Below the pieces are notes generated by a model. The model searched no databases. It had not been told where the DNA came from and worked only from the letters and a program-made list of their open reading frames with translations. The translations under genes were made by a program, and so were the position numbers. From Dyella sp. ASV24 (GTDB lineage: Bacteria > Pseudomonadota > Gammaproteobacteria > Xanthomonadales > Rhodanobacteraceae), in contig NZ_JAELTQ010000015.1 of the NCBI RefSeq assembly GCF_016428905.1, positions 1 to 63,843 on the forward strand: a stretch of 63,843 nucleotides of DNA, in the 5' to 3' direction. Positions 6,210 through 19,895 of this stretch are shown in pieces. The number at the start of each line of letters is the position of its first letter. The first letter of the stretch is position 1.

Positions 6210-6218
6210 GTCGCAGCG

Positions 6219-7433
6219 TCAGTCGCGCCGTACGGGCGGTTGGCCCGCGTAGTTGGCCCGAGGCCGGATAAGGCCACCGTAATCCTGTTGCTCGAGCGCA
6301 TGCGCTAACCAACCGGCCATGCGTCCTGCTGCGAACAGCGAGATCGATGCGTCAGCGCCGAGACCGTGCAGCGTCGCGATGGCGGCCAGCGCAAAATCCA
6401 GCGCTGGCTGACGGCCTACGCTGTCGTGCACCGCATCGGCGAGCTGGCGGATGCGCGTCATACCGTTGAGGCGCGGATGCACGTCGCTGAGCATCTCCAG
6501 TAACAGTGCTGCGCGTGGATCGCCCTCTGGATAGAGCGGGTGGCCGAAGGCGGGCAGCTCGTCCCCACGACGCAGGCGTTCGCGCACGTGGTCGCCGGGG
6601 CGACGCTCACGCAATGCCTGCTGGATAAAGGCGTGCGCGCGGGCTGCTGCGCCGCCATGCTGCGGCCCGGAAAGTGCAGCCAGACCGGCGCTGACCGATG
6701 CATGTAGGCTCGCGCCGGTAGACGCAGCAACGCGCGTGGCAAACGCCGACGCGTTGAGCTCGTGGTCCGCGCACAACACCAGCGCGCTACGCACGAGTTT
6801 CTCCAGCGGTTGGTCGTCGGGTTTCCACGTCTGCGCCATCAGGCGGTGGATAGGACGCCGATCCGGACGTGTGCCGCACAACAGGGCGGCCGTTTCACGC
6901 AACAGGCGCGCGGCGCACTCGCGCCGTTGCAACGGATCGGTGCTGAGCGTGTGGGGCGAGGAGAGTGCGAGCAGGGGCAGCGCTGCTGCCGTGCGCTCCA
7001 TGGGCGGCACTTCCTCGCGGCGGCACAGCATGGCGACAACGGCGGGCCACGCGCGCGCAGGCGTAGAGGCGAACGGATCGCTGTCACTGCCCCAGAGCAG
7101 GCGTGCCACGTCTTCCAGGCTGGCGCCGTCGCGGGCGAGCGAGATCGCCGATTCGCCACGGTAGTAGTGCCCGTGCGGGCGGATCAGCGAAATCCGCGTT
7201 TCCAGGACCGGGAGTCCCCAGGTCAGGCTATGCGCCGCGCCCTTGGCAGCGCCGCGGCCGGCTTGTCGGCGCTCGATCAGCCGCTCGATATCGTCGGCGC
7301 GATACTCGCGGCTGCGCCCGTCCGCGCCAGGGCGTGAGTCGATCTTGCCGCGGCTGACATAGGCATACAGCGTGGAAGCGCTGACGCCCAGCCGTCTGGC
7401 GGCTTCCGGGGCTGAAAGATAGTCGGCATGCAT
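6219..7433 (-). CDS. DNA-binding citrate synthase-family protein (HTH + citrate synthase), putative prp regulator
   Basis: A 404-residue fusion when read from ATG 7433. Residues 1-60 are a MerR/excisionase-type helix-turn-helix (LSAPEAARRLGVSASTLYAYVSRG). The rest is a complete citrate-synthase fold with the expected active-site segments ADHELNAS, GPQHGG, AFGHPLY and an Asp in PALDFAL. A 31-codon upstream extension to 7526 is open, but it would cover the GATCA inverted repeats; the shorter start leaves a normal 140-bp divergent region. It is divergent from prpB and convergent with prpE, so it may sense 2-methylcitrate, citrate or acyl-CoA and control prp genes. That role is inference. Confidence 0.85.
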   Translation of the reverse strand: MHADYLSAPEAARRLGVSASTLYAYVSRGKIDSRPGADGRSREYRADDIERLIERRQAGRGAAKGAAHSLTWGLPVLETRISLIRPHGHYYRGESAISLARDGASLEDVARLLWGSDSDPFASTPARAWPAVVAMLCRREEVPPMERTAAALPLLALSSPHTLSTDPLQRRECAARLLRETAALLCGTRPDRRPIHRLMAQTWKPDDQPLEKLVRSALVLCADHELNASAFATRVAASTGASLHASVSAGLAALSGPQHGGAAARAHAFIQQALRERRPGDHVRERLRRGDELPAFGHPLYPEGDPRAALLLEMLSDVHPRLNGMTRIRQLADAVHDSVGRQPALDFALAAIATLHGLGADASISLFAAGRMAGWLAHALEQQDYGGLIRPRANYAGQPPVRRD

Positions 7434-7441
7434 GCGGACAT

Positions 7442-7470
7442 ATTGATCCTGTCGATCAAGATTGATCAAT
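7442..7470. promoter_or_regulatory. Cluster of TTGATC/GATCAA palindromes (candidate operator of prpBC and the HTH-citrate synthase gene)
   Basis: TTGATC (7443-7448) and GATCAA (7454-7459) form an inverted repeat with a 5-base spacer, directly followed by the perfect 10-bp palindrome ATTGATCAAT (7461-7470). The block sits just upstream of the preferred start of the HTH-citrate synthase gene, in the divergent region facing prpB. Confidence 0.6.
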
Positions 7471-7546
7471 ACATCGCGCGGTGACAGAGTGTCGTCCGTG
7501 CCGCGGCGCGTAGTGCGCCGCGACATGGCCTTGCTGACGCATCGCC

Positions 7547-7566
7547 TACAATACGAGGTTTAGGAG
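7547..7566 (+). promoter_or_regulatory. Putative -10 and ribosome-binding site of prpB
   Basis: TACAAT at 7547-7552 is a good -10 hexamer, but no clear -35 lies 16-18 bases upstream, suggesting activator dependence. AGGAG at 7562-7566 is the ribosome site of prpB. If this -10 is used, the 5' leader is very short. Confidence 0.4.
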
Positions 7567-7573
7567 AATCCCC

Positions 7574-8464
7574 ATGTCCCTCCCCGAATCCGCCGGTAGC
7601 CGCTTCCGCGCTGCCGTTGCCGCCGAAAGTCCTCTGCAGGTGATGGGCGCCATCACCGCCTATGCCGGCCTGATGGCCAAGCGCGTGGGTTACAAGGCGC
7701 TTTACCTGTCAGGTGGTGGTGTTGCTGCAAACTCCCTGGGTATTCCCGACCTGGGCATCTCGACCATGGAGGATGTGCTCACTGACGCACGCCGCATCGT
7801 CGACGCTACTCAGATGCCGCTGCTGGTGGATATCGACACGGGTTGGGGTGGTGCGTTCAATATCGCGCGCACCATCCGTTCGTTTATCAACGTTGGCGTG
7901 GCTGCCGTGCACATCGAGGATCAGGTCGGCCAGAAGCGTTGCGGCCATCGTCCCGGCAAGGAAGTGGTGCCCAAGGAAGAAATGGTTGACCGCGTGAAGG
8001 CTGCCGTCGATGCTCGCACCGATGCCGGCTTCGTGATCATGGCGCGCACCGACGCTGCCGCCGCGGAAGGTATCGATGCGGCGATCGATCGTGCTTGTGC
8101 GTACGTGGAAGCGGGCGCGGACATGATCTTCCCCGAAGCGATGAAGACGCTTGAGGACTACCGCCGTTTCAAGGCGGCGGTGAAGGTGCCGATTCTGGCG
8201 AATCTCACGGAGTTCGGTTCCACTCCGTTCTTCACCACCGACGAACTGCGCACTGCCAACGTTGACATTGCGCTGTATTGCTGCGGTGCCTACCGTGCCA
8301 TGAACAAGGCCGCGCTCAATTTCTACGAGACGGTGCGCCGCGAAGGCACGCAGAAGAACATCATCGACACGCTGCAGACCCGCGCGGATCTGTACGACTT
8401 CCTCGGCTACAACGCCTACGAGGACAAGCTCGACGCGCTGTTCGCCAGCCAGAAGAAGGCCTGA
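7574..8464 (+). CDS. prpB: 2-methylisocitrate lyase
   Basis: A 296-residue member of the isocitrate lyase/PEP mutase family. The catalytic loop [12 protein letters not shown] carries the essential Cys, and the early VDIDTGWGG and following HIEDQ segments supply Mg-binding acids. Length is right for PrpB (about 295) and too short for AceA (about 430). It cleaves 2-methylisocitrate into pyruvate and succinate, the last step of propionate oxidation. ATG 7574 has AGGAG eight bases upstream. It is followed 69 bases later by prpC, forming prpBC. Confidence 0.95.
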
Positions 8465-8533
8465 CCGGCCACCCCATTCGTCGGCCGGGGTACGCCACGG
8501 CCGGTAGAGTCGCATGTTGAGGAGACGTATCCG

Positions 8534-9679
8534 ATGAGCGAGCAAACCCTTCCCAAGCCCAAGAAATCCGTCGCGCTGTCGGGCGTGGCCGCTGGCAACA
8601 CCGCGCTGTGCACGGTGGGCCGCAGCGGCAACGACCTGCATTACCGCGGCTATGACATCCACGATCTGGCAGCCAAGGGCTGCTTCGAAGAAGTGGCCTA
8701 CCTGCTGGTGCACGGCGTGCTGCCGAACTGGGCGGAATTGAACGCCTACCGCGCCAAGCTCAAGCGCCTGCGCGGCCTGCCGGCGCCGGTCAAGAGCGCA
8801 CTGGAGCTGCTGCCCGCCGCTACGCATCCGATGGATGTCATGCGCACGGGTTGCTCGGTGCTGGGCACTGTGCTGCCGGAGAAAGACGACCACAACGTGA
8901 CCGGCGCGCGTGACATCGCCGACCGCCTGATGGCCAGCTTCGGTTCAATGCTGCTGTACTGGTTCCACTTCAGCCACAACGGCAAGCGCATTGAGACGGA
9001 GACGGACGACGAATCCATCGCCGGTCATTTCCTGCATCTGCTGCACGGCAAGAAGCCGAGCGAGCTGCACGCGCATTCGCTGGACAAGTCGCTGATCCTG
9101 TACGCCGAGCATGAGTTCAACGCGTCCACCTTCACGGCGCGCGTCATCGCCGGTACCGGCTCGGACATGTATTCGGCCATCACGGGCGCCATCGGTGCGC
9201 TGCGTGGTCCCAAGCACGGCGGTGCAAACGAAGTGGCGATGGAAATCATCGCGCGCTACCGCAATGCTGCCGAAGCGGAGGCTGATATCCGCGCCCGTGT
9301 CGAGCGCAAGGAGATCATCATCGGCTTCGGTCACCCGGTGTACACCGTGTCCGATCCGCGCAACGAGATCATCAAGGAGATCTCGCGCAAGCTCTGCGCC
9401 GAGGGTGGCAACCCAACCCTGTTCGACGTGTCGGAGAAGATCGAGAAGCTGATGTGGGAACAGAAGAAGATGTTCCCCAACCTCGACTGGTTCTCGGCCA
9501 GCGCGTATCACATGATGGGCGTGCCGACGGCCATGTTCACCCCGCTGTTCGTGATCGCCCGTACCTCCGGCTGGAGCGCGCACGTGATCGAGCAGCGCGA
9601 GGACGGCAAGATCATCCGCCCCAGCGCCAACTACACGGGCCCGGAAGACCAGGCCTACGTGCCGATCGAAAAGCGCTGA
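8534..9679 (+). CDS. prpC: 2-methylcitrate synthase
   Basis: A 381-residue citrate-synthase-fold enzyme condensing propionyl-CoA with oxaloacetate. Active-site segments are [23 protein letters not shown] and the Asp in PNLDWFSAS. The N-terminal [14 protein letters not shown] and its position after prpB identify it as PrpC rather than the larger hexameric GltA. Start ATG has GAGGAGA upstream. A strong terminator closes the prpBC operon. Confidence 0.95.
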
Positions 9680-9700
9680 TCGCTTAGCAAGGTGTTACAG

Positions 9701-9730
9701 AAGAGGGAGCCGAAAGGCTCCCTCTTTCTT
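9701..9730 (+). terminator. Rho-independent terminator of prpBC
   Basis: AAGAGGGAGCC (9701-9711) pairs with GGCTCCCTCTT (9716-9726) around a GAAA tetraloop, followed by TCTTT. A textbook terminator. Confidence 0.9.
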
Positions 9731-10127
9731 TATAAGTTTCGTTGAGGTTCAGGACCCTGTACGACATTGCTATCAATTCGTGTGTCGGGGTGTGACAGGT
9801 TTGATACAGGGTGATTCAACGCGAGGTGTTTTACGCACTTGTTGGTGCAAGGTTTTGATTGCGCAACTCATATCCATCAGTTTATGGCGAGTCGCTCGCA
9901 ACCCCATCAATTCCGGGGTGTAACAGAGATGTGCCACATGATGCGTTGATCCACTTGCGCTCAATCAGACTCACTGATCATGAGTCCACTCAAGCGACTG
10001 ATTTTGTAGACATCCCGCGTGGAGTTGTCGCTGCGGTCGTGCTGGCACGCATGTTGCGAACGATGTGCGCTGGGCCCGCAAGACGCAAACACAGGGGGTC
10101 ACCGCATCAGTTTGGGAGTAAATGACT
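9731..10127 (+). promoter_or_regulatory. Long regulatory region upstream of the Gly-rich exported protein
   Basis: About 400 bases with no convincing gene. It contains two near-identical GGGGTGT(G/A)ACAG motifs at 9787-9798 and 9915-9926; a looser GGTGTTACAG copy lies at 9691 just before the terminator. It also contains an inverted repeat GACTCA-N7-TGAGTC at 9968-9986 with a central TGATCA, and a small palindrome ATGTGCCACAT at 9929-9939. The number of repeats suggests multi-input control, as expected for matrix or fibre genes. No promoter hexamers could be assigned confidently. Confidence 0.5.
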
Positions 10128-11009
10128 ATGCGTAAGACTCTGATAGCAACTGCGATCGTGTTGGGGATGGGATTAACTCTCCCTGCGTTCGCGAACAACA
10201 ACAACAACAGCGGCAGTAGCGACTCCAGTAATACTTACAGCACCTATGCCTCCGGTCAGGATGGCTCCGCTGCAAGTTTTGGTGGCACTGCTGACTCCTT
10301 CAACACCAGTACGGCTGTTGCCAACAGCACACTCAATGGCACGGTCACGAACGTAACTGTTTATGGCATCGGCAACGTGGCTACCAATAATGGCGACGCC
10401 AGTGGTGGTGACGGCGGTCGAGGTGGTAGGGGTATCGGTGGCAAGGCTATCGGCGGCAACGGTGGCGACGGCGGCGACGGCGGCAACGCTCATTCGCGTA
10501 GTGGTCACGCTGGCGGATCCGGCAGTTCGTCGGGTGATTCGGGCGCCTTTGGTGCCTCCCTGGCTGGTGGCGGCGATGGTGGCGGTTCCGGCAACGCGAA
10601 CGATCATCAGCATGCGGGCGGCGGCAGCGGTACGAATACCGGTGGTGCTACGGGTGCTGGCGGAGCAGGTGCTGGCGGATCGTCAGGTGCATCCTCACCG
10701 AGTAGCTATAGCGGCACGTCGAGCTCGACCGGCGGTACCAGTGGGTCGTCCGATGCAACGGCAGGTCTGGGCGGCGCCGGTGGCGCAGGCATGGGCGGAA
10801 CCGGTGGCGCAGGCTCCGGCGGAGCAGGTGGTGCTGGTGGCGCAGGCGGCACGAACGATGTGAATGCTGGCACCTTCGATATGTCGAACCAGATGAACGG
10901 TTCGGCGGCAGCGGCAGCAGGCGTGTCGATCCTTGCGCAGAACAGCGGCGCGGCATCGCTGGTACAGCAGAGCGTCAACGTTCAGGCCAACCTGAATTTC
11001 GCGCACTGA
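10128..11009 (+). CDS. Exported Gly/Ser/Ala-rich protein, candidate amyloid-like fibre subunit
   Basis: A 293-residue protein with a Sec signal peptide (MRKTLIATAIV...LPAFA, about 22 residues). A short Asn/Ser segment and a TLNGTVTNVTVYG stretch follow, then about 150 residues dominated by Gly with GGDGG, GGAGGAG and Ser/Thr blocks, nearly free of charged hydrophobic structure. The C-terminus (GVSILAQNSGAASLVQQSVNVQANL) is a QN-rich motif shared in form with the next gene product. In-frame ATGs are at 10122 and 10128; the latter has better spacing from GGGAG. First gene of a locus with a C39 peptidase and a coiled-coil outer-membrane barrel, as in Fap functional-amyloid operons. Subunit role is inferred. 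Confidence 0.75.
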   Translation: MRKTLIATAIVLGMGLTLPAFANNNNNSGSSDSSNTYSTYASGQDGSAASFGGTADSFNTSTAVANSTLNGTVTNVTVYGIGNVATNNGDASGGDGGRGGRGIGGKAIGGNGGDGGDGGNAHSRSGHAGGSGSSSGDSGAFGASLAGGGDGGGSGNANDHQHAGGGSGTNTGGATGAGGAGAGGSSGASSPSSYSGTSSSTGGTSGSSDATAGLGGAGGAGMGGTGGAGSGGAGGAGGAGGTNDVNAGTFDMSNQMNGSAAAAAGVSILAQNSGAASLVQQSVNVQANLNFAH

Positions 11010-11023
11010 GTGATGGTAACCCG

Positions 11024-11053
11024 ACACGATGGAGCGCTTGCGCTCCATCGTGT
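11024..11053 (+). terminator. Strong intercistronic hairpin without U-tract (possible attenuator or mRNA stabiliser)
   Basis: ACACGATGGAGCG (11024-11036) pairs perfectly with CGCTCCATCGTGT (11041-11053) around CTTG. Without a following T-run it is more likely a partial terminator or 3'-end protector that lets the first subunit be made in excess over the downstream genes. Confidence 0.6.
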
Positions 11054-11147
11054 GCGGTAGTGCCGATCGATGCCTGACCGAGGCAGGTGAACCATTGAGC
11101 GTGTCTCGGTCACCCACGGGCGGATATGCGCCTTAGGAGACAGTGCC

Positions 11148-11567
11148 GTGCGATGCTCCAGGTGGTTGCTTGGTTCGACTGTGTTCTGTGCAGTAGCAGC
11201 GCCTTTCGCACTCGCTGCGGAAGACGCCCATGTTCCTCTTGCTTATCTCACTGACGGCTCCGATTCACCGATCGCCGTCTATGTCGCCGCGACTCGCGAT
11301 GGCGCGGAAAACAAGGCCGACGGCCTGGGTCAGGGCGTGGACAACGCCACACTGGCGGGCTTGAGCGGCGGTGCGGCGGTGACCCAAAACACCACGCTCA
11401 ACGGCACGGTTTCCAACGACTCGGCGAGCCATGTGGTCACAGGTGACAATGTGATCAACGGAGGCGCCTTCGCGAGTGAGGCTGGCATTCCAACCGTGAT
11501 CCAAAACAGCGGTAACAACGTGCTGATCCAGAGCGCGGTTGTGCTGAACGTTGAATTCAAACCATGA
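11148..11567 (+). CDS. Small exported protein with QN-rich C-terminal motif (minor fibre subunit candidate)
   Basis: A 139-residue protein beginning at GTG 11148, with AGGAG eight bases upstream and a clear signal peptide (RWLLGSTVFCAVAAPFALA). The mature part carries TQNTTLNGTVSNDSAS, resembling the TLNGTV segment of the preceding protein, and ends with GIPTVIQNSGNNVLIQSAVVLNVEF, aligning with the C-terminus of the Gly-rich protein. It could be a nucleator (FapB-like) or adaptor (FapE-like). Its stop overlaps the start of the peptidase gene by 4 bases, so the two are translationally coupled. Confidence 0.7.
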   Translation: MRCSRWLLGSTVFCAVAAPFALAAEDAHVPLAYLTDGSDSPIAVYVAATRDGAENKADGLGQGVDNATLAGLSGGAAVTQNTTLNGTVSNDSASHVVTGDNVINGGAFASEAGIPTVIQNSGNNVLIQSAVVLNVEFKP

Positions 11568-12250
11568 ACAAACGAGCAGCGCTGCTGATCCTGATAGCGG
11601 CGCTGCCGATGGGAAGCCGTGCGTCCACGCCCGTGGCGGTGGTGGGAAACGGAAGCGGCTTCTACACGGTGCATTTGACCAGCCTCAAGGAGGCTCGCTA
11701 CAAAAGCACCCTCCACCAGAAATACGATTTCAGCTGCGGGTCTGCCGCGGTGGCCACGCTATTGACGTACCAGTACGGCTATCCCGTCAATGAGCAGGTT
11801 GCATTCGAGCAGATGTACACGCACGGCGACCGCGCCAAGATCAACAAAGAAGGTTTCTCTCTGCTGGATATCAAGCGGTTTCTTGATGCCAACGGCTTCG
11901 ACGCCGATGGATTCAAGGTGCCGATCGACAAGCTTGCGGAAGAGCACCTGCCGGCCATCGTGCTGATCAACGAGCGCGGCTATCACCATTTTGTGGTGAT
12001 CAAAGGGATCGTGAATGACCGCATCCTGGTGGGCGATCCCGCGCGTGGCACGCGTGTCATCCCGCGCGACAAGTTCATGTCGGTGTGGCAGAACGGCTTG
12101 GTCTTCGTGATCCACAACCGGCGAAATCTCGCCGTCTTCAACAGCCCAAGCGATTGGAAAGTGGCGCCTCAGGCACCGCTGAGCATCGGTGTTGATCGCG
12201 GCAATCTTTTCAACACCGTGATGCCCAAGAAAGGGCCGGACGATCTTTGA
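11564..12250 (+). CDS. Exported C39-family peptidase (FapD-like)
   Basis: A 228-residue protein with a short N-terminal signal-like segment and a papain-fold C39 domain: catalytic Cys58 in DFSCGSAAVATLL, His141/His142 in GYHHFVV, and Asp158 in VGDPARG. C39 peptidases cut after Gly-Gly in leader peptides; stand-alone periplasmic versions occur in Fap amyloid operons (FapD). It overlaps the preceding gene by 4 bases and lies directly before a protein with a Gly-Gly site. Processing or quality control of fibre components is the likely role; the substrate is not proven. Confidence 0.8.
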   Translation: MNKRAALLILIAALPMGSRASTPVAVVGNGSGFYTVHLTSLKEARYKSTLHQKYDFSCGSAAVATLLTYQYGYPVNEQVAFEQMYTHGDRAKINKEGFSLLDIKRFLDANGFDADGFKVPIDKLAEEHLPAIVLINERGYHHFVVIKGIVNDRILVGDPARGTRVIPRDKFMSVWQNGLVFVIHNRRNLAVFNSPSDWKVAPQAPLSIGVDRGNLFNTVMPKKGPDDL

Positions 12251-12254
12251 GGGC

Positions 12255-12839
12255 ATGGCGATGAGACCGACCACACGCATCATCTGTCTCAGCGTCGCTT
12301 TTCTTATAAGCGGTCCTGGGGCCTATCAGGCTGACGCACAGGAAGGGGTGTCTGCTGCGGCGAGCTCAGTGCCACCGGCATCAACTGCGATAACGTCTGG
12401 CGCCGCCTCGGCTGACGCGATGGCCGACTGGACCCCGGTGAGCGCCGAAACGCTCGATGAAACGCGCGGTGGCTTCGATATGGGTAACGGTCTGGTGGCT
12501 TCGTTCGGCATCGATCGGGCGGTGTACGTGAACGGCAATCTGGTGACCCAGACCAGCTTCAATGTTCCGGACATTGCGCACATGACCACGGCACAGGCGA
12601 CCGCGATGTCGACGGCGCTCAACTCGGTAGCCGTGACCCAGGTAGGCGGGAGCAACACGTTCGACCCAACGTCGCTGGGCGGCGTGTCGGCAGGCACGGT
12701 CATTCAGAACACGCTGAACAACCAGACCATCAAGAGCATCACCACCGTCAATGCGACGGTCAACTCGCTCAATGCATTCCAGCAAATGAATCTCCAGCAA
12801 TCGTTGCAACAGACACAGCTGCAGTCACTAGGGCACTAA
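12255..12839 (+). CDS. Exported protein with double-Gly site and QN-rich tail (putative C39 substrate)
   Basis: A 194-residue protein with an N-terminal signal peptide (RIICLSVAFLISG...YQADA), a low-complexity Ala/Ser linker, then SAETLDETRGGF in which Gly72-Gly73 resembles a C39 cleavage site. The following segment (GNGLVASFGIDRAVYVNGNLV) is predicted beta-rich. The C-terminal part contains GTVIQNTLNNQTIKSI and a Gln/Asn-rich amphipathic end with many QQ pairs. Gene lies 4 bases after the C39 peptidase gene. Possibly FapE/FapA-like; I do not recognise a named family with certainty. Confidence 0.65.
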   Translation: MAMRPTTRIICLSVAFLISGPGAYQADAQEGVSAAASSVPPASTAITSGAASADAMADWTPVSAETLDETRGGFDMGNGLVASFGIDRAVYVNGNLVTQTSFNVPDIAHMTTAQATAMSTALNSVAVTQVGGSNTFDPTSLGGVSAGTVIQNTLNNQTIKSITTVNATVNSLNAFQQMNLQQSLQQTQLQSLGH

Positions 12840-12949
12840 CCGGAAATGGGGGAGCACTGCCAGGCGTTTCTGCATAGCGCGAATACACCGCGGCTCTTTA
12901 CCGCGGCGCATCCGTATGTGCTGGTCAAACAAGAAAGTCATGGGGAAGC

Positions 12950-14425
12950 ATGATGCGACACTCAGCATGGCAGTTCGTATGTTCGGCAGGATGTGCTGGC
13001 CTGGTGATGCTAGGCGTCCCAGTCGCGGCTCAGCAGGCAACACAGGCGCAAGGTGCCGCGTCCACATCTTCAACAACACCCGCGTCCACTAATGCTCAGA
13101 CGGCGGCTGACGCAGCCACGCCGGCTTCCTCGGACGACATCAAGAAGAAGGTGCTGGAGCAGGGCGAGCGCATCGATGCCATGCGCAGCCAGATCAGTGC
13201 CCAGATCGAGCAGCTCGACGCGATGAAGCGCGCTCTGGCTGCACAGGAAGCCGACTATCAGTCGCTACGACACGCGGTCGGCATGGATGAGCTGGACAAG
13301 CAGCGCGCAGGCAGCATTGCCGCAGGCGGCCCTGGCGCGTCTGCGCTGCCGATGCCGGCGGGTGATGCGATGGCCGCCAACGCGCCGTCGACCGACCAGG
13401 CGCAAGGTCAGCAGCCCGTGGGGCAGGCACCCAAGCAGGACACACGCCCGCCCGAAGTGGCGCAGATCTTCCAGCAGCCCGGCGTGTTGACGCCCAAAGG
13501 CAAGCTGATCATCGAGCCGGCTTATCAGTTTGGTTATTCCTCGGTCGATCGTGTCGCACTGGTCGGCTACACGGTGATTCCGGCAATCCTGATTGGCCTG
13601 ATCGATGCGCGTCAGGTGAAAGACACAACGCAGATCGGTTGGCTGACCACGCGCTATGGCATCACTAACCGCATGGAAGTCGAGGTGCGCATTCCTTATG
13701 TCTATGCGCACCAGGACACGATCAGTCGTGAAATATTCACCGGCACAGCAACCGACAACGCCTTCGGCGCCAGCGGCCATGGCCTTGGTGATATCGAGGC
13801 GACGTTGCGTTATCAGCTCAACGTCGGTGGTCCGGACAAGGCGTTCTACGTCGGCTGGTTGCGCGTAAAATCGCGCACAGGTACCGATCCGTTCCAGGTG
13901 ACCACGGATTGCATCCAGCGTTGTGTGGAGAACGTGATCAACGAGGTGGATCTGTCTGCCACCGGGACAGGTCTACCGTTGCAGGAGCCCACGGGATCGG
14001 GCTTCTGGTCCATCCAGCCAGGCGTGACGTGGCTGTACCCGACGGATCCGGTGGTCTTCTTCGGCAACGTGAGCTACCTCTACAACGTTGCGCGCGACAA
14101 CGTGTCCCGCAAGATACTGCTGGGCGGCACGGAACAGCTGGGCAGGGTGAAGGAGGGCAACGTCGCCGATGTCAGCATCGGCATGGGCCTGTCGCTTAAC
14201 GAAAAGGCGTCCATGAGCATCGGTTATGACCAGAGCTTCGTCGGCATTACGAAGCAGAACAACCAGACCGTGCCGGGTTCGGTGAAGACCGTACTCGGCA
14301 CGCTGCTGATCGGTGGCTCATGGCGCTTCAACGACAAGCGCACGCTCAACTTCACGCTGGGTGTGGGTGTTACGCGCGATACGCCGGACCTGACGGTGAC
14401 CGTGCGCATGCCGATGATGTTCTGA
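12950..14425 (+). CDS. Outer-membrane beta-barrel with periplasmic coiled coil (FapF-like exporter)
   Basis: A 491-residue exported protein with a signal peptide ending near AAQQA. An Ala/Thr-rich linker precedes a heptad-like helix at residues 63-109 (DIKKKVLEQGERIDAM...) and a Pro/Gln linker. From about 175 a series of amphipathic beta strands runs to the C-terminus, which ends in RMPMMF, a terminal Phe typical of outer-membrane barrels. Coiled coil plus barrel is the architecture of FapF, the trimeric amyloid-subunit channel. Start is ATG 12950 or 12953, after GGGGAAGC. The large size compared with FapF (about 400) comes mainly from the N-terminal linker. Confidence 0.75.
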   Translation: MMRHSAWQFVCSAGCAGLVMLGVPVAAQQATQAQGAASTSSTTPASTNAQTAADAATPASSDDIKKKVLEQGERIDAMRSQISAQIEQLDAMKRALAAQEADYQSLRHAVGMDELDKQRAGSIAAGGPGASALPMPAGDAMAANAPSTDQAQGQQPVGQAPKQDTRPPEVAQIFQQPGVLTPKGKLIIEPAYQFGYSSVDRVALVGYTVIPAILIGLIDARQVKDTTQIGWLTTRYGITNRMEVEVRIPYVYAHQDTISREIFTGTATDNAFGASGHGLGDIEATLRYQLNVGGPDKAFYVGWLRVKSRTGTDPFQVTTDCIQRCVENVINEVDLSATGTGLPLQEPTGSGFWSIQPGVTWLYPTDPVVFFGNVSYLYNVARDNVSRKILLGGTEQLGRVKEGNVADVSIGMGLSLNEKASMSIGYDQSFVGITKQNNQTVPGSVKTVLGTLLIGGSWRFNDKRTLNFTLGVGVTRDTPDLTVTVRMPMMF

Positions 14426-14437
14426 TGCATGGAACCT

Positions 14438-14463
14438 GCACGCCAACCGTGGTGTTGGCGTGC
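14438..14463 (+). terminator. Hairpin closing the Fap-like locus
   Basis: GCACGCCAAC (14438-14447) pairs perfectly with GTTGGCGTGC (14454-14463). There is no strong T-run, but it lies between convergent genes and is the only candidate terminator. Confidence 0.55.
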
Positions 14464-14475
14464 CTGGCGTGAGGG

Positions 14476-15084
14476 TTAGAGCCCCTCTTGCTGCATCGCC
14501 GCCTTGACGCCGGCGTCTTCCATCATGCGTTGGTGGAAGCGGGGGAGGTTGTCGAGGCCGGACAGGTCCACACCTTTGCCCATGGCCCAACGCAGTACGA
14601 CGAACAGATAGGGATCGGCGAACGAGCGCGTGCCGGTCAGCCAATCACGGCCGTGCAATTGCGTATCGATGCGCTCGTAGTAGGCGCGCAGGCGTTGGAC
14701 GGACTTAGTGCGGAGTGCTTCCTGCGCCGCTGTGTCGTCAATGAAGCGCTCCGGACGGAACACCGGCTTGAATAGCGGATGGAGGTCCGAGTTGAGATAG
14801 GCGAGCCAGCGGTTTACTTCAGCACGGCCACGCGCACCTTCACCGCCGAGCCCGGCGAGCGGGAACTTGTCGGCAAGGTAATTGAGGATGGCCACGTTCT
14901 CCGTCAGCACCCAGCCGTCTGGCTCCTGCAGGGCAGGGACCATGCCGGATGGATTGAGCTGCAGGTACGCTGGCGAACCCAATTCCTCGCGCGCGACGCG
15001 ATGGCTTTCGTAGGGCTGGCCGATCCACTCGAGAACGATATGGTCGGACAGCGAACAGGCGCCCGGCAGGTAGTACAGCTTCAT
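14476..15084 (-). CDS. Glutathione S-transferase family protein
   Basis: A 202-residue cytosolic protein: N-terminal thioredoxin-fold domain (MKLYYLPGACSLSDHI) with the cis-Pro region SGMVPALQ and the glutathione-contact pair TENVAI, then an all-helical C-terminal domain. It resembles bacterial beta-class GstA, in which the SLxxHI segment carries the catalytic Ser/Cys. Conjugates glutathione to electrophiles. Start 15084 gives the canonical N-terminus and has AAGGAAAT upstream. The gene stands alone, downstream of the TerC-family gene on the same strand. Confidence 0.88.
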   Translation of the reverse strand: MKLYYLPGACSLSDHIVLEWIGQPYESHRVAREELGSPAYLQLNPSGMVPALQEPDGWVLTENVAILNYLADKFPLAGLGGEGARGRAEVNRWLAYLNSDLHPLFKPVFRPERFIDDTAAQEALRTKSVQRLRAYYERIDTQLHGRDWLTGTRSFADPYLFVVLRWAMGKGVDLSGLDNLPRFHQRMMEDAGVKAAMQQEGL

Positions 15085-15140
15085 GGGGATTTCCTTGTTA
15101 GGTCTTATCCACGAAGTGTCGCCTGCCAGGCGCACTACCC

Positions 15141-15821
15141 TCAAGCGGCGGCTTGTGCGCGAAGGCGACGGCGCTGCATCAGCCAGCCGCCAAGGCATAC
15201 GCTGATGACCAGCACGGCATCGAGCACGTACTTGGCCCATGCGTTTGCCTCGAACCAGGGCGATAGCCAATGGTCGTGCGCGATCATGCGTGCGGCCGTC
15301 CAGGCGATGGCGCCTGCGCCAATGTAGACGATTGCCGGGAACCGCTCGATCAGGCGCAGGATCAGGGACGAGCCCCACACGACCAGCGGCACGCTAATCG
15401 CCAGGCCAATGATCACCAACACCATATGGCCCTTGGCGGCACCGGCGATGGCCAGCACGTTGTCCAGGCCCATCAACGCATCGGCGACGATGATCGTGCG
15501 CATGGCCACCCAAAAACTGCCGGCCGCGCCGACCGCATGCGCGGGCTTGTCCTCCGGCTGCAGTAGTTTCCAGGCGATAGGCAGGAGCAGCAGGCCGCCC
15601 ACCAGCATCAGGCCGGGCAGTTCCAGCAGGAAGACCACGACACCGGTAAGCCCCAGGCGGACGGCCACGGCGCCCACCGTGCCCCACAGCACGGCTTTCT
15701 TCTGGATCTGGCGGGGAAGGTTGCGTGCGGCCAGCGCGATCACGATAGCGTTGTCGCCTGCGAGTACCAGGTCGAGCAGCACGATGGCCAGCAGGCCGGA
15801 GAGAAATTCGGTGAGTTCCAT
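15141..15821 (-). CDS. TerC/YjbE-family integral membrane protein (probable Mn2+ exporter)
   Basis: A 226-residue inner-membrane protein of about seven helices. The conserved acidic signatures LDLVLAGDNAIVIALA (helix 1) and ADALMGLDNVLAIAGAAKGH are hallmarks of TerC-family transporters (YjbE/YkoY/Alx). Members such as Alx and MeeF/MeeY have been linked to manganese efflux. A probable manganese riboswitch lies in the leader, strongly supporting metal export. It ends with a basic, Arg/Ala-rich tail. Formerly annotated as tellurium resistance, for which there is no evidence here. Confidence 0.88.
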   Translation of the reverse strand: MELTEFLSGLLAIVLLDLVLAGDNAIVIALAARNLPRQIQKKAVLWGTVGAVAVRLGLTGVVVFLLELPGLMLVGGLLLLPIAWKLLQPEDKPAHAVGAAGSFWVAMRTIIVADALMGLDNVLAIAGAAKGHMVLVIIGLAISVPLVVWGSSLILRLIERFPAIVYIGAGAIAWTAARMIAHDHWLSPWFEANAWAKYVLDAVLVISVCLGGWLMQRRRLRAQAAA

Positions 15822-15848
15822 GGGTCAGTCTCTGCGCGTAAGACAAAT

Positions 15849-15885
15849 GCAGCAATGACAGGCACGCGCGGCCTGTCATTACTGC
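15849..15885 (-). terminator. Expression-platform hairpin between riboswitch and TerC gene
   Basis: A 15-bp stem (15849-15863 with 15871-15885, one G:U wobble, 7-base loop) immediately downstream of the riboswitch aptamer in the transcript, followed on the minus strand by AUUUGUCUU. This looks like the switchable terminator controlled by the aptamer. Confidence 0.65.
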
Positions 15886-16000
15886 AAAAGTCTCGTTCGC
15901 GGCAGAACCGCCGCAGTGACCGGAGCGGGTTTCCGCTCGTGATGACGACCACTGCAAGAGCACCGATGAAGCCGATGCCCGGAACTACTCCCTTTTGGGA
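15883..16000 (-). ncRNA. Probable yybP-ykoY (manganese) riboswitch
   Basis: Minus-strand transcript begins AAAAGGGAGUAGUUCC, contains paired arms around GCGGAAACCCGC, and ends with CGAACGAGACUUUUGCAGU. The GGGAGUAG loop near the 5' end and the GAGAC(U)UUUGC closing segment match my memory of the yybP-ykoY consensus, and TerC-family genes are its best-known partners. Mn2+ binding normally switches the exporter gene on. Not checked against a covariance model. Confidence 0.7.
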
Positions 16001-16039
16001 TCAGTATTTACGTATTGTCGATGTCGCTGTGTGCCTGCG

Positions 16040-17224
16040 TCAAGCGACGGGGACGTGCACCCAGCCTTCCATCAGCACGCGCGCGCTGCGGCTCATGATG
16101 GCCTTGGTGACGGCCCAGGTGCCGTCCACCAGCGCCGCCTCGGCGCCCACCCGCAACGTTCCCGACGGGTGGCCAAAGCGCACCGCCTGACGTTCACCAC
16201 CACCAGAGGCAAGGTTCACCAGGGTGCCTGGAATGGCCGCAGCGGTGCCGATAGCCACCGCTGCGGTGCCCATCATGGCGTGATGCAGCTTGCCCATGGA
16301 CATGGCGCGCACGAGCAGGTCGATATCACCCGCCGCCACCGGCTTGCCGCTGGACGCGACGTAATCGGTGGGCTTGGCGACGAAGGCCACCTTCGGCGTG
16401 TGCTGGCGCGTGGCGATCTCGTCGAGCGAGGTGATCAGGCCCATACGCAGCGCGCCATGCGCGCGAATGGTTTCGAACATGGCCAGCGCCTTGGCATCAC
16501 TATTGATCGCGTCCTGCTGCTCCGTGCCGGTGTAACCGATGGCGGAGGCTTCGACGAAGATCGTGGGAATGCCGGCGTTGATCATGGTTGCCTTGAGCGT
16601 GCCGACGCCCGGCACCTCCAGGTCGTCGACCACATGTCCGGTGGGGAACATCGCGCCGCCGGCGCCGTCTTCGTCGGCCGCAGGGTCCATGAATTCCAAC
16701 TGCACTTCGGCGGCAGGGAAGGTCACACCATCCAGCTCAAAATCACCGGTTTCCTGCACTGCGCCGTCGGTCATCGGCACGTGCGCGATGATCGTCTTGC
16801 CGATGTTGGCCTGCCAGATGCGCACGGTAGCAATGCCGTCGCGCGGCACGCGCGCGGGATCGACCAAGCCACCAGTGATCGCGAATGGGCCGACGGCTGC
16901 CGACAGGTTGCCGCAATTGCCACTCCAGTCGACGAACGCCTTGTCGATCGCCACCTGGCCGAACAGGTAATCCACGTCGTGGTCCGGGCGGCTGCTCTTG
17001 GACACGATCACCGTCTTGCTGGTGCTGGACGTGGCGCCGCCCATGCCGTCGATCTGCTTCCCATAGGGATCAGGGCTGCCGATCACGCGCATCAGTAGCG
17101 CGTCACGTGCAGCGCCCGGCACCTGCGCTGCGTCGGGCAGATCCTGCAGGCGGAAGAAAACGCCCTTGCTGGTGCCGCCGCGCAAGTAGGTGGCCGGAAT
17201 GCGGATCTGCGGTTTATGGCTCAT
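16040..17224 (-). CDS. prpF: 2-methyl-cis-aconitate isomerase PrpF
   Basis: A 394-residue enzyme of the diaminopimelate-epimerase-like fold. Early YLRGGTSKGVFF and GNCGNLSAAVGPFA (with a likely catalytic Cys) are characteristic PrpF segments, as is the SMGKLHHAMMGTAAVA region. It isomerises the trans/cis double bond of 2-methylaconitate made by AcnD, so AcnD+PrpF together replace PrpD. Start is taken at ATG 17224; a longer opening to 17245 adds seven unsupported residues. It follows acnD on the same strand with about 76 bases between, containing a strong hairpin. Confidence 0.93.
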   Translation of the reverse strand: MSHKPQIRIPATYLRGGTSKGVFFRLQDLPDAAQVPGAARDALLMRVIGSPDPYGKQIDGMGGATSSTSKTVIVSKSSRPDHDVDYLFGQVAIDKAFVDWSGNCGNLSAAVGPFAITGGLVDPARVPRDGIATVRIWQANIGKTIIAHVPMTDGAVQETGDFELDGVTFPAAEVQLEFMDPAADEDGAGGAMFPTGHVVDDLEVPGVGTLKATMINAGIPTIFVEASAIGYTGTEQQDAINSDAKALAMFETIRAHGALRMGLITSLDEIATRQHTPKVAFVAKPTDYVASSGKPVAAGDIDLLVRAMSMGKLHHAMMGTAAVAIGTAAAIPGTLVNLASGGGERQAVRFGHPSGTLRVGAEAALVDGTWAVTKAIMSRSARVLMEGWVHVPVA

Positions 17225-17256
17225 GGAAATCCCGTGTCGATGCAATCGTTGTTACT

Positions 17257-17281
17257 CCCCTCTCCCCCAAGGGGAGAGGGG
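17257..17281. repeat. GC-rich perfect hairpin between acnD and prpF
   Basis: CCCCTCTCCCC (17257-17267) pairs with GGGGAGAGGGG (17271-17281) around a 3-base loop. As it separates two co-directional genes of one pathway, it may be a REP-like element or a partial terminator/processing site lowering prpF relative to acnD. Confidence 0.6.
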
Positions 17282-17300
17282 CTTTCGCGAAGTCAGGTGA

Positions 17301-19895
17301 TTACGCGGCTTGGGAGGCTTCGAGGAAGTCCTGCGCAAAGCGCTGCAGCACGCCGCCGGCTTCATAGATCGACACTTCTTCAGCAGTGTCCAGGCGACAG
17401 GTGACGGGTACGTCGACGCGTTCGCCGTTCTTGCGGTGGATGACCAATGTAAGGTCTGCGCGCGGCGTGCGTTGGCCGATCACATCGAACGTCTCGGTGC
17501 CGTCGATGTCGAACGTCTTGCGGGTTGCGCCCGACTTGAACTCCAGCGGCAGCACGCCCATGCCGATCAGGTTGGTGCGATGAATGCGCTCGAAGCCTTC
17601 GGCCACGATCGCTTCCACGCCCGCCAGACGCACACCCTTGGCGGCCCAGTCACGTGACGAGCCTTGGCCATAGTCCGCGCCGGCGATGATGATCAACGGC
17701 TGCTTGCGATGCATATAGGTTTCGATGGCTTCCCACATGCGCATCACATGGCCTTCCGGTTCCACGCGGGCAAGCGAGCCTTTCTTCACTTCGCCATCGA
17801 CTACGGCCATCTCGTTGAGCAAGGTCGGGTTGGCGAAGGTGGCGCGCTGTGCGGTCAGGTGATCGCCACGATGGGTCGCGTACGAATTGAAGTCCTCTTC
17901 CGGCAGGCCCATCTTGGCGAGGTACTCACCCGCTGCGCTATCGAGCAGGATCGCATTCGACGGCGACAGATGGTCGGTGGTGATGTTGTCACCGAGCACA
18001 GCCAGCGGACGCATACCGGTGAGCGTCCGCTCGCCTGCGAGCGCACCTTCCCAGTACGGCGGACGGCGGATGTAGGTGCTTTGCGCGCGCCAGTCGTATA
18101 GCGGCGCGGCGCTGGTGCCGGTGCTGCCGGAGCGTGCAAACATCGGGTCGTAGACCTTGCGGAACTGCTCAGGTTTTACGCTGGACGATACGATGGCATC
18201 GATCTCTTCGTCCGATGGCCAGATATCCTTGAGCGTCACCGGCTGGCCGTTGGCGTCGACGCCGAGCACGTCCTTCTCGATATCGAAACGGATGGTGCCT
18301 GCGATGGCATAAGCCACCACCAACGGCGGTGAGGCGAGGAACGCTTGCTTTGCATAGGGGTGAATGCGGCCATCGAAATTGCGGTTGCCCGAAAGCACAG
18401 CAGTGGCATACAAGTCGCGATCAATGATTTCCTGCTGAATCTTCGGATCCAATGCACCCGACATGCCGTTGCACGTGGTGCACGCAAAGGCGACGATGCC
18501 GAAGCCGAGCTTCTCCAGGTCAGGTAGCAGGTTCGCTTCCTTGAGATACAGCTCCACCGCTTTGGAGCCGGGGGCGAGCGAACTCTTCACCCACGGCTTG
18601 CGCGTCAGGCCGCGCGCATTGGCGTTGCGTGCAAGCAAGGCGGCGGCAATCACGTTGCGCGGATTGCTGGTGTTGGTGCAGCTGGTGATGGCCGCAATGA
18701 TCACGGCGCCATCGGGCATCTGACCCGGTTGTTCCTCCCACTGGCCGGCAATGCCACGTGCAGCAAGATCAGCCGTGGGCAGGCGCTTGTGCGGGTTGGA
18801 CGGGCCAGCCATGTTGCGCACCACGGAGGACAGATCGAACGTCAGCGTGCGCTCGTAGTGTGCAGCCGCAAGCGTATCGGCCCACAGGCCAGCAGCCTTG
18901 GCATAGGTTTCGACCAGCTTCACCTGTTCATCGCTGCGGCCGGTGAGGCGCAGGTAGTCGATGGTCTGGTTGTCGATGAAGAACATCGCCGCAGTGGCGC
19001 CGTATTCGGGCGCCATGTTGGAGATGGTCGCGCGATCGCCCAGCGTCAGGCTGGATGCACCTTCGCCGCGGAACTCCAGGTACGCGCCGACCACTTTCTC
19101 CTTGCGCAGGAATTCAGTGAGTGCGAGCACGATGTCCGTAGCGGTGATGCCCGGCTGACGCTTGCCGGTGAGCTCGACGCCAATGATGTCGGGCAGGCGC
19201 ATCCACGATGCGCGGCCGAGCATCACGTTCTCCGCCTCCAGGCCACCCACGCCGATGGCGATGACGCCCAGCGCATCCACATGCGGCGTATGACTGTCGG
19301 TGCCCACACAGGTATCTGGATAGGCCACGCCATCCTGCACCTGGATCACCGGCGACATCTTCTCCAGGTTGATCTGGTGCATGATGCCGTTGCCCGGCGG
19401 GATGACGTCGACGTTCTCGAACGCCTTCTTGGTCCAGTTGATGAAGTCGAAGCGGTCTTCGTTGCGGCGATCCTCGATGGCGCGGTTCTTGGCGAACGCG
19501 TTGGGGTCAAAGCCACCGCATTCCACTGCGAGCGAGTGATCGACGATCAGCTGCACCGGCACCACCGGGTTCACCTTGGCCGGGTCGCCACCGCGTTCGG
19601 CGATTGCGTCACGCAGGCCGGCCAGATCCACCAGTGCTGTCTGGCCGAGAATGTCATGGCATACCACGCGCGCCGGGAACCACGGGAAATCGCGCTCACG
19701 CTTGCGCTCGATGATTTGCTTGAGCGACTCGGTGAGGATCGCCGGGTCGCATCGGCGCACCAGGTTCTCGGCGAGTACGCGTGAGGTATAGGGCAGCGCG
19801 TCATAGGCGCCCGGCTGGATCGCCTCCACGGCGGCACGTGCATCGAAGTAATCCAGCGACGTGCCGGGGAGGGATTGGCGGTAGGCAGTATTCAT
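17301..19895 (-). CDS. acnD: 2-methylcitrate dehydratase, Fe-S dependent (AcnD)
   Basis: An 864-residue aconitase-family enzyme, the length expected for AcnD. The [4Fe-4S] ligand segments SCTNTSNP and ACTTCNGMSGALDP are intact, and GSSRDWAAKG in the swivelling C-terminal domain supplies the substrate-binding Arg/Ser. It dehydrates 2-methylcitrate to a 2-methylaconitate isomer that needs PrpF; the downstream prpF distinguishes it from AcnA. ATG 19895 gives MNTAYRQSLPGT, the usual start; a longer opening to 20057 is not supported. Divergent from prpD. Confidence 0.93.
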   Translation of the reverse strand: MNTAYRQSLPGTSLDYFDARAAVEAIQPGAYDALPYTSRVLAENLVRRCDPAILTESLKQIIERKRERDFPWFPARVVCHDILGQTALVDLAGLRDAIAERGGDPAKVNPVVPVQLIVDHSLAVECGGFDPNAFAKNRAIEDRRNEDRFDFINWTKKAFENVDVIPPGNGIMHQINLEKMSPVIQVQDGVAYPDTCVGTDSHTPHVDALGVIAIGVGGLEAENVMLGRASWMRLPDIIGVELTGKRQPGITATDIVLALTEFLRKEKVVGAYLEFRGEGASSLTLGDRATISNMAPEYGATAAMFFIDNQTIDYLRLTGRSDEQVKLVETYAKAAGLWADTLAAAHYERTLTFDLSSVVRNMAGPSNPHKRLPTADLAARGIAGQWEEQPGQMPDGAVIIAAITSCTNTSNPRNVIAAALLARNANARGLTRKPWVKSSLAPGSKAVELYLKEANLLPDLEKLGFGIVAFACTTCNGMSGALDPKIQQEIIDRDLYATAVLSGNRNFDGRIHPYAKQAFLASPPLVVAYAIAGTIRFDIEKDVLGVDANGQPVTLKDIWPSDEEIDAIVSSSVKPEQFRKVYDPMFARSGSTGTSAAPLYDWRAQSTYIRRPPYWEGALAGERTLTGMRPLAVLGDNITTDHLSPSNAILLDSAAGEYLAKMGLPEEDFNSYATHRGDHLTAQRATFANPTLLNEMAVVDGEVKKGSLARVEPEGHVMRMWEAIETYMHRKQPLIIIAGADYGQGSSRDWAAKGVRLAGVEAIVAEGFERIHRTNLIGMGVLPLEFKSGATRKTFDIDGTETFDVIGQRTPRADLTLVIHRKNGERVDVPVTCRLDTAEEVSIYEAGGVLQRFAQDFLEASQAA

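What the first reader, a model, noticed from the sequence alone, without database searches (positions are those of the whole stretch)
10128..14425. Fap-like amyloid/fibre export locus with a Gly-rich subunit, lying inside the prp cluster
Five co-directional genes encode a Gly/Ser-rich exported protein, a small exported protein, a C39 peptidase, another exported protein and a coiled-coil outer-membrane barrel. Peptidase plus coiled-coil barrel plus low-complexity subunits is the logic of the Pseudomonas Fap system (FapD, FapF, FapB/C). Here the subunit is a Gly-rich protein unlike the usual FapC repeats, no FapA is obvious, and the locus splits the methylcitrate cluster, so it may be a distinct or divergent lineage.
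Basis: partly seen in the sequence, partly recalled or inferred. Interest (0 to 1): 0.8.

Follow-up and report, generated by a model that had tools for sequence, protein, structure and literature searches.

The report
Fap-related fibre export operon in Dyella
A soil bacterium carries a five-gene operon that most likely builds a surface fibre in the way Pseudomonas builds its Fap amyloid, but with a different, glycine-rich main subunit and with readable cut sites that suggest what the system's protease cuts, a question left open in the Pseudomonas system.

Summary
In detail: five co-directional genes (10128-14425) encode P1, a Gly-rich exported protein; P2, small and exported; P3, a C39 peptidase; P4, exported; and P5, a coiled-coil plus outer-membrane barrel. 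P5 is a FapF homologue (NCBIfam 2e-42; the best 18 solved-structure matches are all FapF). P3's best family is FapD (3e-40), Gln-Cys-His-Asp intact. Both score far below the FapD/FapF equivalog cut-offs. In trees they form a separate, supported lineage, and six genomes hold barrels of both types. P4 is a remote FapE homologue. P1 and P2 lack Fap repeats (none in 195 lineage entries); no FapA was found.

New here: P4 (66 of 68 unique) and P2 (54 of 64) carry a double-glycine leader (V/L-S-x-x-x-L-x-x-V/I/M-x-G-G), the C39 substrate signature. Classical FapE carries the same motif ending G-R/K. The FapD substrate was reported undetermined in 2017-2018, so this makes it testable. P1 and P2, and P2 and P4, share C-terminal tails. 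A conserved hairpin follows P1 (43 of 45 loci), as one often follows FapC. A sigma-54 promoter lies 85 nt upstream of P1 (37 of 45 loci).

Verdict: a Fap-related but distinct fibre-export family; new variant of a known kind. Fibres and cleavage are inferred, not shown.

The parts
9700..9733 (+). terminator-like hairpin with T-tract after prpC; separates prpBC from this operon
   Evidence: RNA fold of 9676-9745: -27.1 kcal/mol, z -4.0, 0 of 200 shuffles as good. The consensus scan of 9650-14600 did not list it
10043..10057 (+). sigma-54 (-24/-12) promoter TGGCACG-N4-TTGC, 85 nt before the P1 start
   Evidence: only exact match in the window, though three matches with up to 1 mismatch are what chance gives; at most 1 mismatch in 37 of 45 orthologous loci, 58-118 nt upstream of P1, against 26 of 1260 random 400-nt stretches
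10128..11009 (+). P1: proposed major subunit; signal peptide, short N-terminal cap, Gly-rich middle, conserved C-terminal cap
10395..10862 (+). P1 variable low-complexity middle, GGX-like (glycine period 3, z 4.2)
   Evidence: length and composition vary widely among relatives; borders by eye
10864..11003 (+). P1 C-terminal cap shared with P2 (AAG...AQNSG..SL[IV]QQ.V.VQANL)
   Evidence: profile comparison with P2 tails: probability 95.8, 0 of 100 column shuffles as good
11021..11057 (+). long stem-loop directly after the P1 stop codon, no T-tract; proposed mRNA stabiliser/attenuator that sets the subunit ratio
   Evidence: -28.9 kcal/mol, z -5.6; 43 of 45 loci z < -2.5, against 6, 3, 2 and 4 of 45 after P2, P3, P4, P5; 11 of 12 pairs with two-sided changes
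11148..11567 (+). P2: small exported subunit with double-glycine leader, counterpart by position of FapB/FapC
11367..11372 (+). P2 Gly74-Gly75, predicted C39 cleavage site (V-D-N-A-T-L-A-G-L-S-G-G)
   Evidence: GG leader in 54 of 64 unique P2 proteins; strict LxxxxGG 52 of 64 against 5.8 expected
11564..12250 (+). P3: periplasmic C39 peptidase, FapD-like; Gln52, Cys58, His142, Asp158
   Evidence: Pfam C39 1e-21; NCBIfam FapD 3e-40, below the equivalog cut-off; the four residues invariant in 15 aligned relatives
12255..12839 (+). P4: FapE-like exported protein with double-glycine leader
   Evidence: profile comparison with classical FapE core: probability 91.3, 0 of 100 column shuffles as good
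12468..12473 (+). P4 Gly72-Gly73, predicted C39 cleavage site (V-S-A-E-T-L-D-E-T-R-G-G-F)
   Evidence: GG leader in 66 of 68 unique P4 proteins; strict LxxxxGG 64 of 68 against 7.0 expected
12950..14425 (+). P5: outer-membrane export barrel, FapF-like; coiled coil about residues 61-110, barrel about 186-490
   Evidence: NCBIfam FapF 2.3e-42, below cut-off; phmmer to FapF structures 6e-23 to 7e-22; model and fold search

Best explanation
The operon is a Fap-related extracellular fibre system of its own lineage. All five proteins cross the inner membrane by Sec. In the periplasm the C39 peptidase P3 cuts P2 and P4 after a double-glycine leader (P2 Gly75, P4 Gly73), removing an N-terminal propeptide and releasing a mature P2 of 64 residues and a mature P4 of 121. 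P5, a coiled-coil/barrel protein like FapF, then exports P1, P2 and P4. P4 acts like FapE (initiator or anchor), P2 as a minor or nucleating subunit, and P1 is the main subunit: a low-complexity Gly-rich stretch between conserved caps, whose C-terminal cap is shared with P2. A sigma-54 promoter switches the operon on, and a stem-loop after P1 raises the amount of P1 over the other products. Shown by sequence: homology of P3, P5 and (remotely) P4, the leaders, the shared tails, the promoter and the hairpin. Inferred: cleavage, export, assembly into a fibre, amyloid nature, and the division of labour between subunits.
For: P5: FapF profile 2.3e-42, FapF structures 6e-23 to 7e-22, the best 18 Foldseek matches all FapF. 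P3: FapD is the best NCBIfam match; catalytic residues invariant in 15. P4-FapE core: profile probability 91.3, 0 of 100 shuffles as good; a FapE HMM from classical loci reaches P4s of L060, L118, L122, L145 and L148 at 6.6e-6 to 4e-4. Leaders: P4 66 of 68 and P2 54 of 64; strict pattern 64 of 68 and 52 of 64 against 7.0 and 5.8 expected, P1 2 of 53 against 7.6. P1/P2 and P2/P4 tails related (95.8 and 93.9). Hairpin after P1 in 43 of 45 loci; in classical operons after the FapC position in 11 of 17 but after FapB 1, FapD 0, FapE 0 and FapF 4 of 17. Sigma-54 promoter in 37 of 45, and before several classical fap operons too.
Against: Nothing here shows export, cleavage or fibres. P1 and P2 have no detectable Fap repeat (P2 tail against Fap repeats only 17.9, though 0 of 100 shuffles reach it), so amyloid nature does not follow by homology. 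P1 and P4 tails are not directly related by profile (6.1; 1 of 100 shuffles as good). The window's own P4 is not hit by the FapE HMM. That HMM also hits FapB/FapC-type proteins at similar E-values, and after rebuilding it only L118, L122 and L148 stay below 1e-3, matched over the N-terminal core, while L060 falls to 0.89 and L145 is lost. Two of 68 P4 lack the leader as searched (L106 is cut by a contig end, L120 has Met at -7) and 10 of 64 P2 lack it, 7 of these with G-S/K/R/Q at the place (by eye). In Pseudomonas FapE, mass spectrometry found no peptides in the first ~70 residues (PMC5557850, section 8), which reaches past the motif, so the cut could lie elsewhere. Both models are weak (P5 mean pLDDT 53; P4 49).
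Confidence: 0.7

Rival explanations
1. It is simply a divergent classical Fap operon (fapBCDEF without fapA), with P1/P2 as FapC/FapB.
For: Same slots for peptidase, FapE-like protein and barrel; FapA is often missing in Fap (PMC3792158, passages); similar sigma-54 promoter and post-subunit hairpin.
Against: Separate supported clades for peptidase and barrel; barrels of both types in the same genome in six cases, with both operons seen in the four cases fetched; no Fap repeats in 195 P1/P2/P4 entries of the lineage; 138 bits of 330 and 145 of 700 needed for FapD and FapF; P2 carries a GG leader, while PMC5557850 says that Fap proteins lack canonical C39 sites.
Confidence: 0.15
2. A peptide export (bacteriocin-like) system: P2, with its GG leader and ~64-residue mature part, is an exported antimicrobial or signal peptide.
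For: C39 peptidases and GG leaders are the hallmark of bacteriocin export; mature P2 is 63-69 residues in 53 of 54.
Against: P3 has a signal peptide and no ABC transporter domain in the Pfam scan; no ABC transporter or immunity gene is seen by eye in 6000-19000. P1/P2 and P2/P4 tails are related, which fits subunits of one structure. P5 and, remotely, P4 are Fap homologues.
Confidence: 0.07
3. A non-fibrous surface coat or adhesin: the barrel displays Gly-rich P1 as a loose polyglycine-type layer rather than an ordered amyloid fibre.
For: P1 is GGX-like with glycine period 3 and few aromatics; its middle varies from Gly-rich to Ser/Asn-rich among relatives, which fits a spacer more than a cross-beta core.
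Against: Conserved caps rich in Q/N are shared by P1 and P2, and by P2 and P4; the FapC-like placement of the hairpin suggests a mass-produced polymer subunit.
Confidence: 0.25
4. A member of the Acinetobacter-type Fil system (FilB/FilC).
For: P3 and P5 match FilB (4e-34) and FilC (4e-10) profiles.
Against: FapD and FapF match better. The two Fil-like loci (L137, L142; my label, from gene content) fall outside this lineage in both trees.
Confidence: 0.03

Closest known systems
Fap system (fapABCDEF) of Pseudomonas and relatives
   Same: Periplasmic C39 peptidase (FapD), coiled-coil export barrel (FapF), FapE-like protein, exported low-complexity subunits; sigma-54-type promoter in several operons and a hairpin after the FapC position in 11 of 17
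   Different: No FapA; no Fap repeats in P1/P2; canonical GG leaders in P4 and P2 (classical FapE ends G-R/K); own clades; Gly-rich main subunit with capped architecture
Fil system (FilB/FilC; NF050078/NF050079)
   Same: C39 peptidase and barrel profiles match
   Different: Weaker matches than to Fap; two Fil-like loci lie outside this lineage in the trees
Five-protein 'Fap' complex of 'Fervidacidithiobacillus caldus' (PMC10853474, passages)
   Same: C39 protein and barrel both reported in membrane vesicles; a five-protein complex; an Acidithiobacillus MAG (L060) holds P2-P3-P4 with P5 on the other strand
   Different: Published as Fap; I did not compare its sequences, so identity with this lineage is a lead only
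COG4313 outer-membrane channels (PDB 4rl8)
   Same: Next-best fold after FapF
   Different: Described as uptake channels with no C39 peptidase reported in their operons (PMC6173800, passages)

Membership tests
Fap system | FapF-type coiled-coil export barrel | tested here: met
   homology and fold, but 145 bits against an equivalog cut-off of 700
Fap system | FapD periplasmic C39 peptidase with catalytic Cys | tested here: met
   137.8 bits against an equivalog cut-off of 330
Fap system | FapE | tested here: inconclusive
   remote homology by profile-profile comparison of cores; weak and partly unstable HMM hits to relatives' P4; the window P4 itself is not hit
Fap system | FapB/FapC with (nearly always three) imperfect Fap repeats | tested here: not met
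   repeat HMM from 55 classical repeats: no hit in 195 P1/P2/P4 entries of the lineage (some identical) nor in the window, while 45 ORFs of the loci set are positive; 'three repeats almost universal' from PMC12822426 passages
Fap system | FapA (often absent in true Fap) | tested here: not met
   FapA HMM finds nothing in the window; one of its five seeds was a wrong sequence
Fap system | falls inside the Fap clade of peptidase and barrel trees | tested here: not met
   separate branches: peptidase SH-aLRT 96 for 44 rows of this lineage, 100 for 17 fap rows; barrel 100/98 and 100/100
Fap system | amyloid fibres on the cell surface | not testable with these tools
   needs dye binding, fibre purification, microscopy
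Fil system | groups with FilB/FilC-type loci | tested here: not met
   (two Fil-like loci only)
C39 double-glycine processing | substrate leader L-S-x-x-E-L-x-x-I-x-G-G (consensus recalled; PMC5557850 gives the GG motif) | tested here: met
   for P4 and P2; no NCBIfam leader model hit any of 17 P4 proteins
C39 double-glycine processing | actual cleavage after GG | not testable with these tools
   needs N-terminal mass spectrometry
Curli (CsgA/CsgG) | CsgG secretion channel, CsgA repeats | not tested
   considered only; no curli family among the Pfam or NCBIfam matches of the five proteins

The most novel reading that the evidence does not exclude
This is a separate class of extracellular fibre machine, sister to Fap. 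Sec-delivered subunits carry a double-glycine leader that a periplasmic C39 peptidase removes, and the main polymer is a freely varying low-complexity chain (Gly-rich GGX in Dyella, Ser/Asn-rich elsewhere) held between conserved assembly caps. The same leader, degenerated to G-R/K, is the FapD site in FapE, so one rule (Sec signal, then GG-type leader, then FapD-like cut, then FapF-like barrel) covers Fap, this lineage and probably Fil.
Probability: 0.45. Interest if true: 0.78.

Novelty: new variant of a known kind. Interest (0 to 1): 0.62.

Why it matters
FapD's proteolytic activity is needed for Fap secretion, yet two papers I read in part call its substrate unclear (PMC5557850, 2017, section 8) or undetermined (PMC6173800, 2018, passages), and the first states that Fap proteins lack canonical C39 sites, with FapE the likeliest target. 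A 2025 review (PMC12822426, passages) says FapD is thought to process the FapE N-terminus and the periplasmic region of FapF. This lineage shows the missing signature in canonical form in two of its three candidate substrates, and the same signature in a G-R/K form in classical FapE, which turns the question into a few mutants and a mass-spectrometry run. It also suggests that FapF-type barrels serve subunits without Fap repeats, so repeat-based searches will miss such systems.

Tried and rejected
Fap repeats and FapA in the window: none. Pfam/NCBIfam names for P1, P2 and P4: none; NCBIfam at E up to 10 on 17 P4 proteins gave six families with one member each, none of them a leader model. Rfam over 9500-15000: nothing. 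Sigma-70 scan of 9650-14600: one weak match inside P1, no more than chance gives. P1 tail against P4 tail directly: not significant. P1 N-terminal flank against P2 N-terminal flank: 58.6, 0 of 60 shuffles as good, on 19 and 36 sequences picked by motif and so only suggestive. P4 structure: too poor to use (pLDDT 49). Nine literature searches listed no paper that by its title or the start of its abstract describes this lineage, the hairpin or the FapE leader; several lists were capped (one search showed 20 of 131), and I read only passages or sections of seven papers, so absence from print is not established.

Rows dropped or thinned: 25 loci (22 from L023-L052, mostly Dyella and Luteibacter, plus L105, L107, L109) were left out of the trees; peptidases without the trimming motif and barrels at or under 90 bits were lost (64 peptidase rows, 72 barrel rows). 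Three classical labels (L097, L100, L153) were set by hand; Fap repeats were found in all three. Of 19 classical loci tried for the hairpin, L097 and L100 dropped out; Fap genes there are named by position only. Gene calls in relatives are mechanical and some starts are wrong (L033, L056, L058), which costs the promoter count. Relatives are not independent, so k of n counts overstate the evidence. Shuffle counts for leaders are composition controls only, and the leader patterns were chosen after the motif had been seen; one search took a wrong match in a too-long ORF in at least L058 and L110, where the right motif is also present.


Full report
WHAT IS THERE. The window holds five co-directional ORFs at 10128-14425, here called P1 to P5. 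P2 and P3 overlap by 4 nt, P3 and P4 are 4 nt apart, and P5 follows P4 after 110 nt. The window belongs to a genome whose nearest named relatives are Dyella: a Dyella contig encodes an 88% identical P3, and 18 of 19 other genomes of its genus hold P5 at 79-90% identity (the one miss is 86% complete). The neighbourhood is old: in all 31 loci L023-L053 (Dyella, Luteibacter and two MAGs) prpB and prpC hits lie upstream. A terminator-like hairpin after prpC (9700-9733) suggests that the operon is a unit of its own.

HOMOLOGY. P5 matches the FapF model of NCBIfam (2.3e-42, 145 bits; cut-off 700) and FapF crystal structures (6e-23 to 7e-22). Its predicted model, though weak (mean pLDDT 53), shows a coiled-coil-like helix at 61-110 and a strand-rich barrel, and its first 18 structure matches are all FapF, followed by the COG4313 channel 4rl8. 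P3 is a C39 peptidase (Pfam 1e-21) with FapD as best NCBIfam family (3e-40, 137.8 bits; cut-off 330). Gln52, Cys58, His142 and Asp158 are invariant in 15 aligned relatives. P1, P2 and P4 match no Pfam or NCBIfam family at E up to 1.

A SEPARATE LINEAGE. In 97 genomes of the family searched with the FapF model, 56 have a match. Read off its table, 20 genomes hold a high-scoring type (365-408 bits) and 40 the window's type (133-170 bits), 5 of them both; one genome has only a short coiled-coil match. G037 of the same order also holds both. Loci fetched from four of these six genomes show a P1-P5 operon and, elsewhere in the genome, a peptidase-barrel locus with Fap repeats (L096/L101, L097/L102, L098/L105, L100/L103). 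In the peptidase tree the window's lineage (44 rows) is one side of a branch at SH-aLRT 96 and Fap (17 rows) at 100 (quick method). In the barrel tree the lineage plus one lone barrel copy (L126) has 100/98, and Fap plus one row that I had left unlabelled (L151) has 100/100. Two Fil-like loci lie outside both; L065, from a Nitrospirae MAG and with Fap-like repeats, sits near Fap in one tree and apart in the other. Across wider samples, 69 of 369 genomes of the class match the FapF model and 38 of 398 of the phylum match P5, counting both types and short matches. Members of the lineage occur in Paucimonas, Propionivibrio, Zeimonas and an Acidithiobacillus MAG, there with P5 on the other strand. 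PMC6173800 (passages) had noted FapD-FapF pairs in five further phyla, and PMC3792158 (section 5) that FapD and FapF likely belong to two larger families, so the existence of unnamed relatives was foreseen.

SUBUNITS. An HMM of 55 classical Fap repeats finds no P1, P2 or P4 among 195 lineage entries (some identical) and nothing in the window, while 45 ORFs of the loci set are positive, all but one of them in loci labelled Fap or in L151. P4's core aligns with that of classical FapE (probability 91.3; 0 of 100 column shuffles as good). The FapE HMM built from classical loci reaches five P4s, though not the window's own; it also hits FapB/FapC-type proteins, and in its rebuilt form only three of the five P4s stay below 1e-3, matched over the N-terminal core. 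The C-terminal tails of P1 and P2, and of P2 and P4, are related (95.8 and 93.9; 0 of 100 shuffles each); P1 against P4 directly is not (6.1; 1 of 100). P1 has a middle that differs from relative to relative: the window's P1 is 28% glycine with glycine period 3 (z 4.2), others are Ser/Asn-rich, and ORF lengths run from 193 (L131) to 789 (L147). P1 therefore looks like capped modules around a variable spacer.

LEADERS. P4 and P2 carry a double-glycine leader between signal peptide and mature part. In 66 P4 proteins position -7 is Leu in all (by the pattern), -12 is Val, Leu or Ile in 57, -11 is Ser in 34, -3 is Arg in 65, then Gly-Gly; in 54 P2 proteins -7 is Leu in 52, then Gly-Gly. These are 66 of 68 and 54 of 64 unique proteins. 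A recount gives 63 of 68 P4 with L-x-x-x-[RC]-G-G-[FY] and three more with Leu or Ile after G-G; of the two misses one is cut by a contig end and one has Met at -7. Of the ten P2 misses, seven have Gly followed by Ser, Lys, Arg or Gln at the place and three show nothing similar (by eye). The stricter LxxxxGG test gives 64 of 68 and 52 of 64 against 7.0 and 5.8 in shuffled sequences, and 2 of 53 against 7.6 for P1. The pattern agrees with the C39 leader consensus L-S-x-x-E-L-x-x-I-x-G-G (recalled). Of 31 proteins listed as hit by the rebuilt FapE HMM above 70 bits (or below that in the same loci), 22 carry the motif in the form [LMV]-x-x-x-[RHT]-G-[RK]-[FYW]; the other nine look mostly like FapB by eye. 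In the 22, positions not fixed by the pattern also fit: Leu/Val/Ile at -12 in 22, Asp at -10 in 17, Glu at -8 in 17. They come from loci that likely include Pseudomonas (judged from genome size and number, not by name). FapD's Cys is needed for FapC secretion and its target was unclear (PMC5557850, section 8 read). That paper reports no FapE peptides in the first ~70 residues, which agrees with processing of FapE but reaches past this motif, so the exact cut in FapE is open.

EXPRESSION. A perfect sigma-54 promoter (TGGCACG-N4-TTGC) lies at 10043-10057, 85 nt before P1. In the whole window three matches with up to one mismatch are what chance gives, so the case rests on conservation: at most one mismatch in 37 of 45 orthologous loci at 58-118 nt from P1, against 26 of 1260 random 400-nt stretches from the same loci, which can include the true sites. 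Similar sites lie shortly before the first gene of several classical fap operons (L096, L098, L121, L133, L141). In P. [quoted passage not shown] Right after the P1 stop lies a long hairpin without T-tract (11021-11057; z -5.6). It is there in 43 of 45 loci (z < -2.5), against 6, 3, 2 and 4 of 45 after P2 to P5; in classical operons it follows the FapC position in 11 of 17 but FapB in 1, FapD 0, FapE 0 and FapF 4 of 17. Of 12 consensus pairs in 20 sequences of the family, 11 show kept pairs with both sides changed. This marks P1, like FapC, as the product needed in excess.

READING. The system works like Fap, with P3 and P5 homologous to FapD and FapF and P4 remotely to FapE, but it is not a member of Fap by the tests made (repeats, tree position). 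It is best filed as a sister family. What is new, as far as I could find, is the leader pair, the capped variable subunit, the hairpin and the promoter. Fibre formation, amyloid nature and cleavage are inferred.

Noticed in passing
L137:7195-7632 (- strand), with C39 gene 6352-7110 and barrel 5303-6313: A Fil-like locus encodes a 145-aa exported protein with L-D-D-S-A-L-A-D-V-T-G-Q just after the signal peptide: the same leader with G-Q instead of G-G, so Fil substrates may be cut by the same rule.
   Followed up: no
L118 (458 aa) and L120 (451 and 468 aa): AAA-type regulators that look by eye like sigma-54 enhancer-binding proteins lie close upstream of P5 in these relatives, candidates for the direct activator of such operons.
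   Followed up: no
L121: Two FapD-like and two FapE-like genes in one stretch: what looks like a tandem duplication of a classical fap operon.
   Followed up: no
L126 (G771), barrel of 398 aa: A P5-type barrel with no peptidase or subunit hit beside it, inside the window's lineage in the tree, in a genome that also has a locus with P2, P3 and P5 (L125).
   Followed up: partly
G000:C111:14544-14765: The window's genome has a 533-aa open frame whose N-terminal part matches the FapF coiled coil (E 5e-6); many other genomes have a similar weak match, probably another porin family with a coiled-coil start.
   Followed up: no
L042:2052-4506: In this Luteibacter about 2.4 kb lie between prpC and the P1 start, filled by a mechanically called ORF on the other strand, instead of about 0.45 kb in the window.
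   Followed up: no
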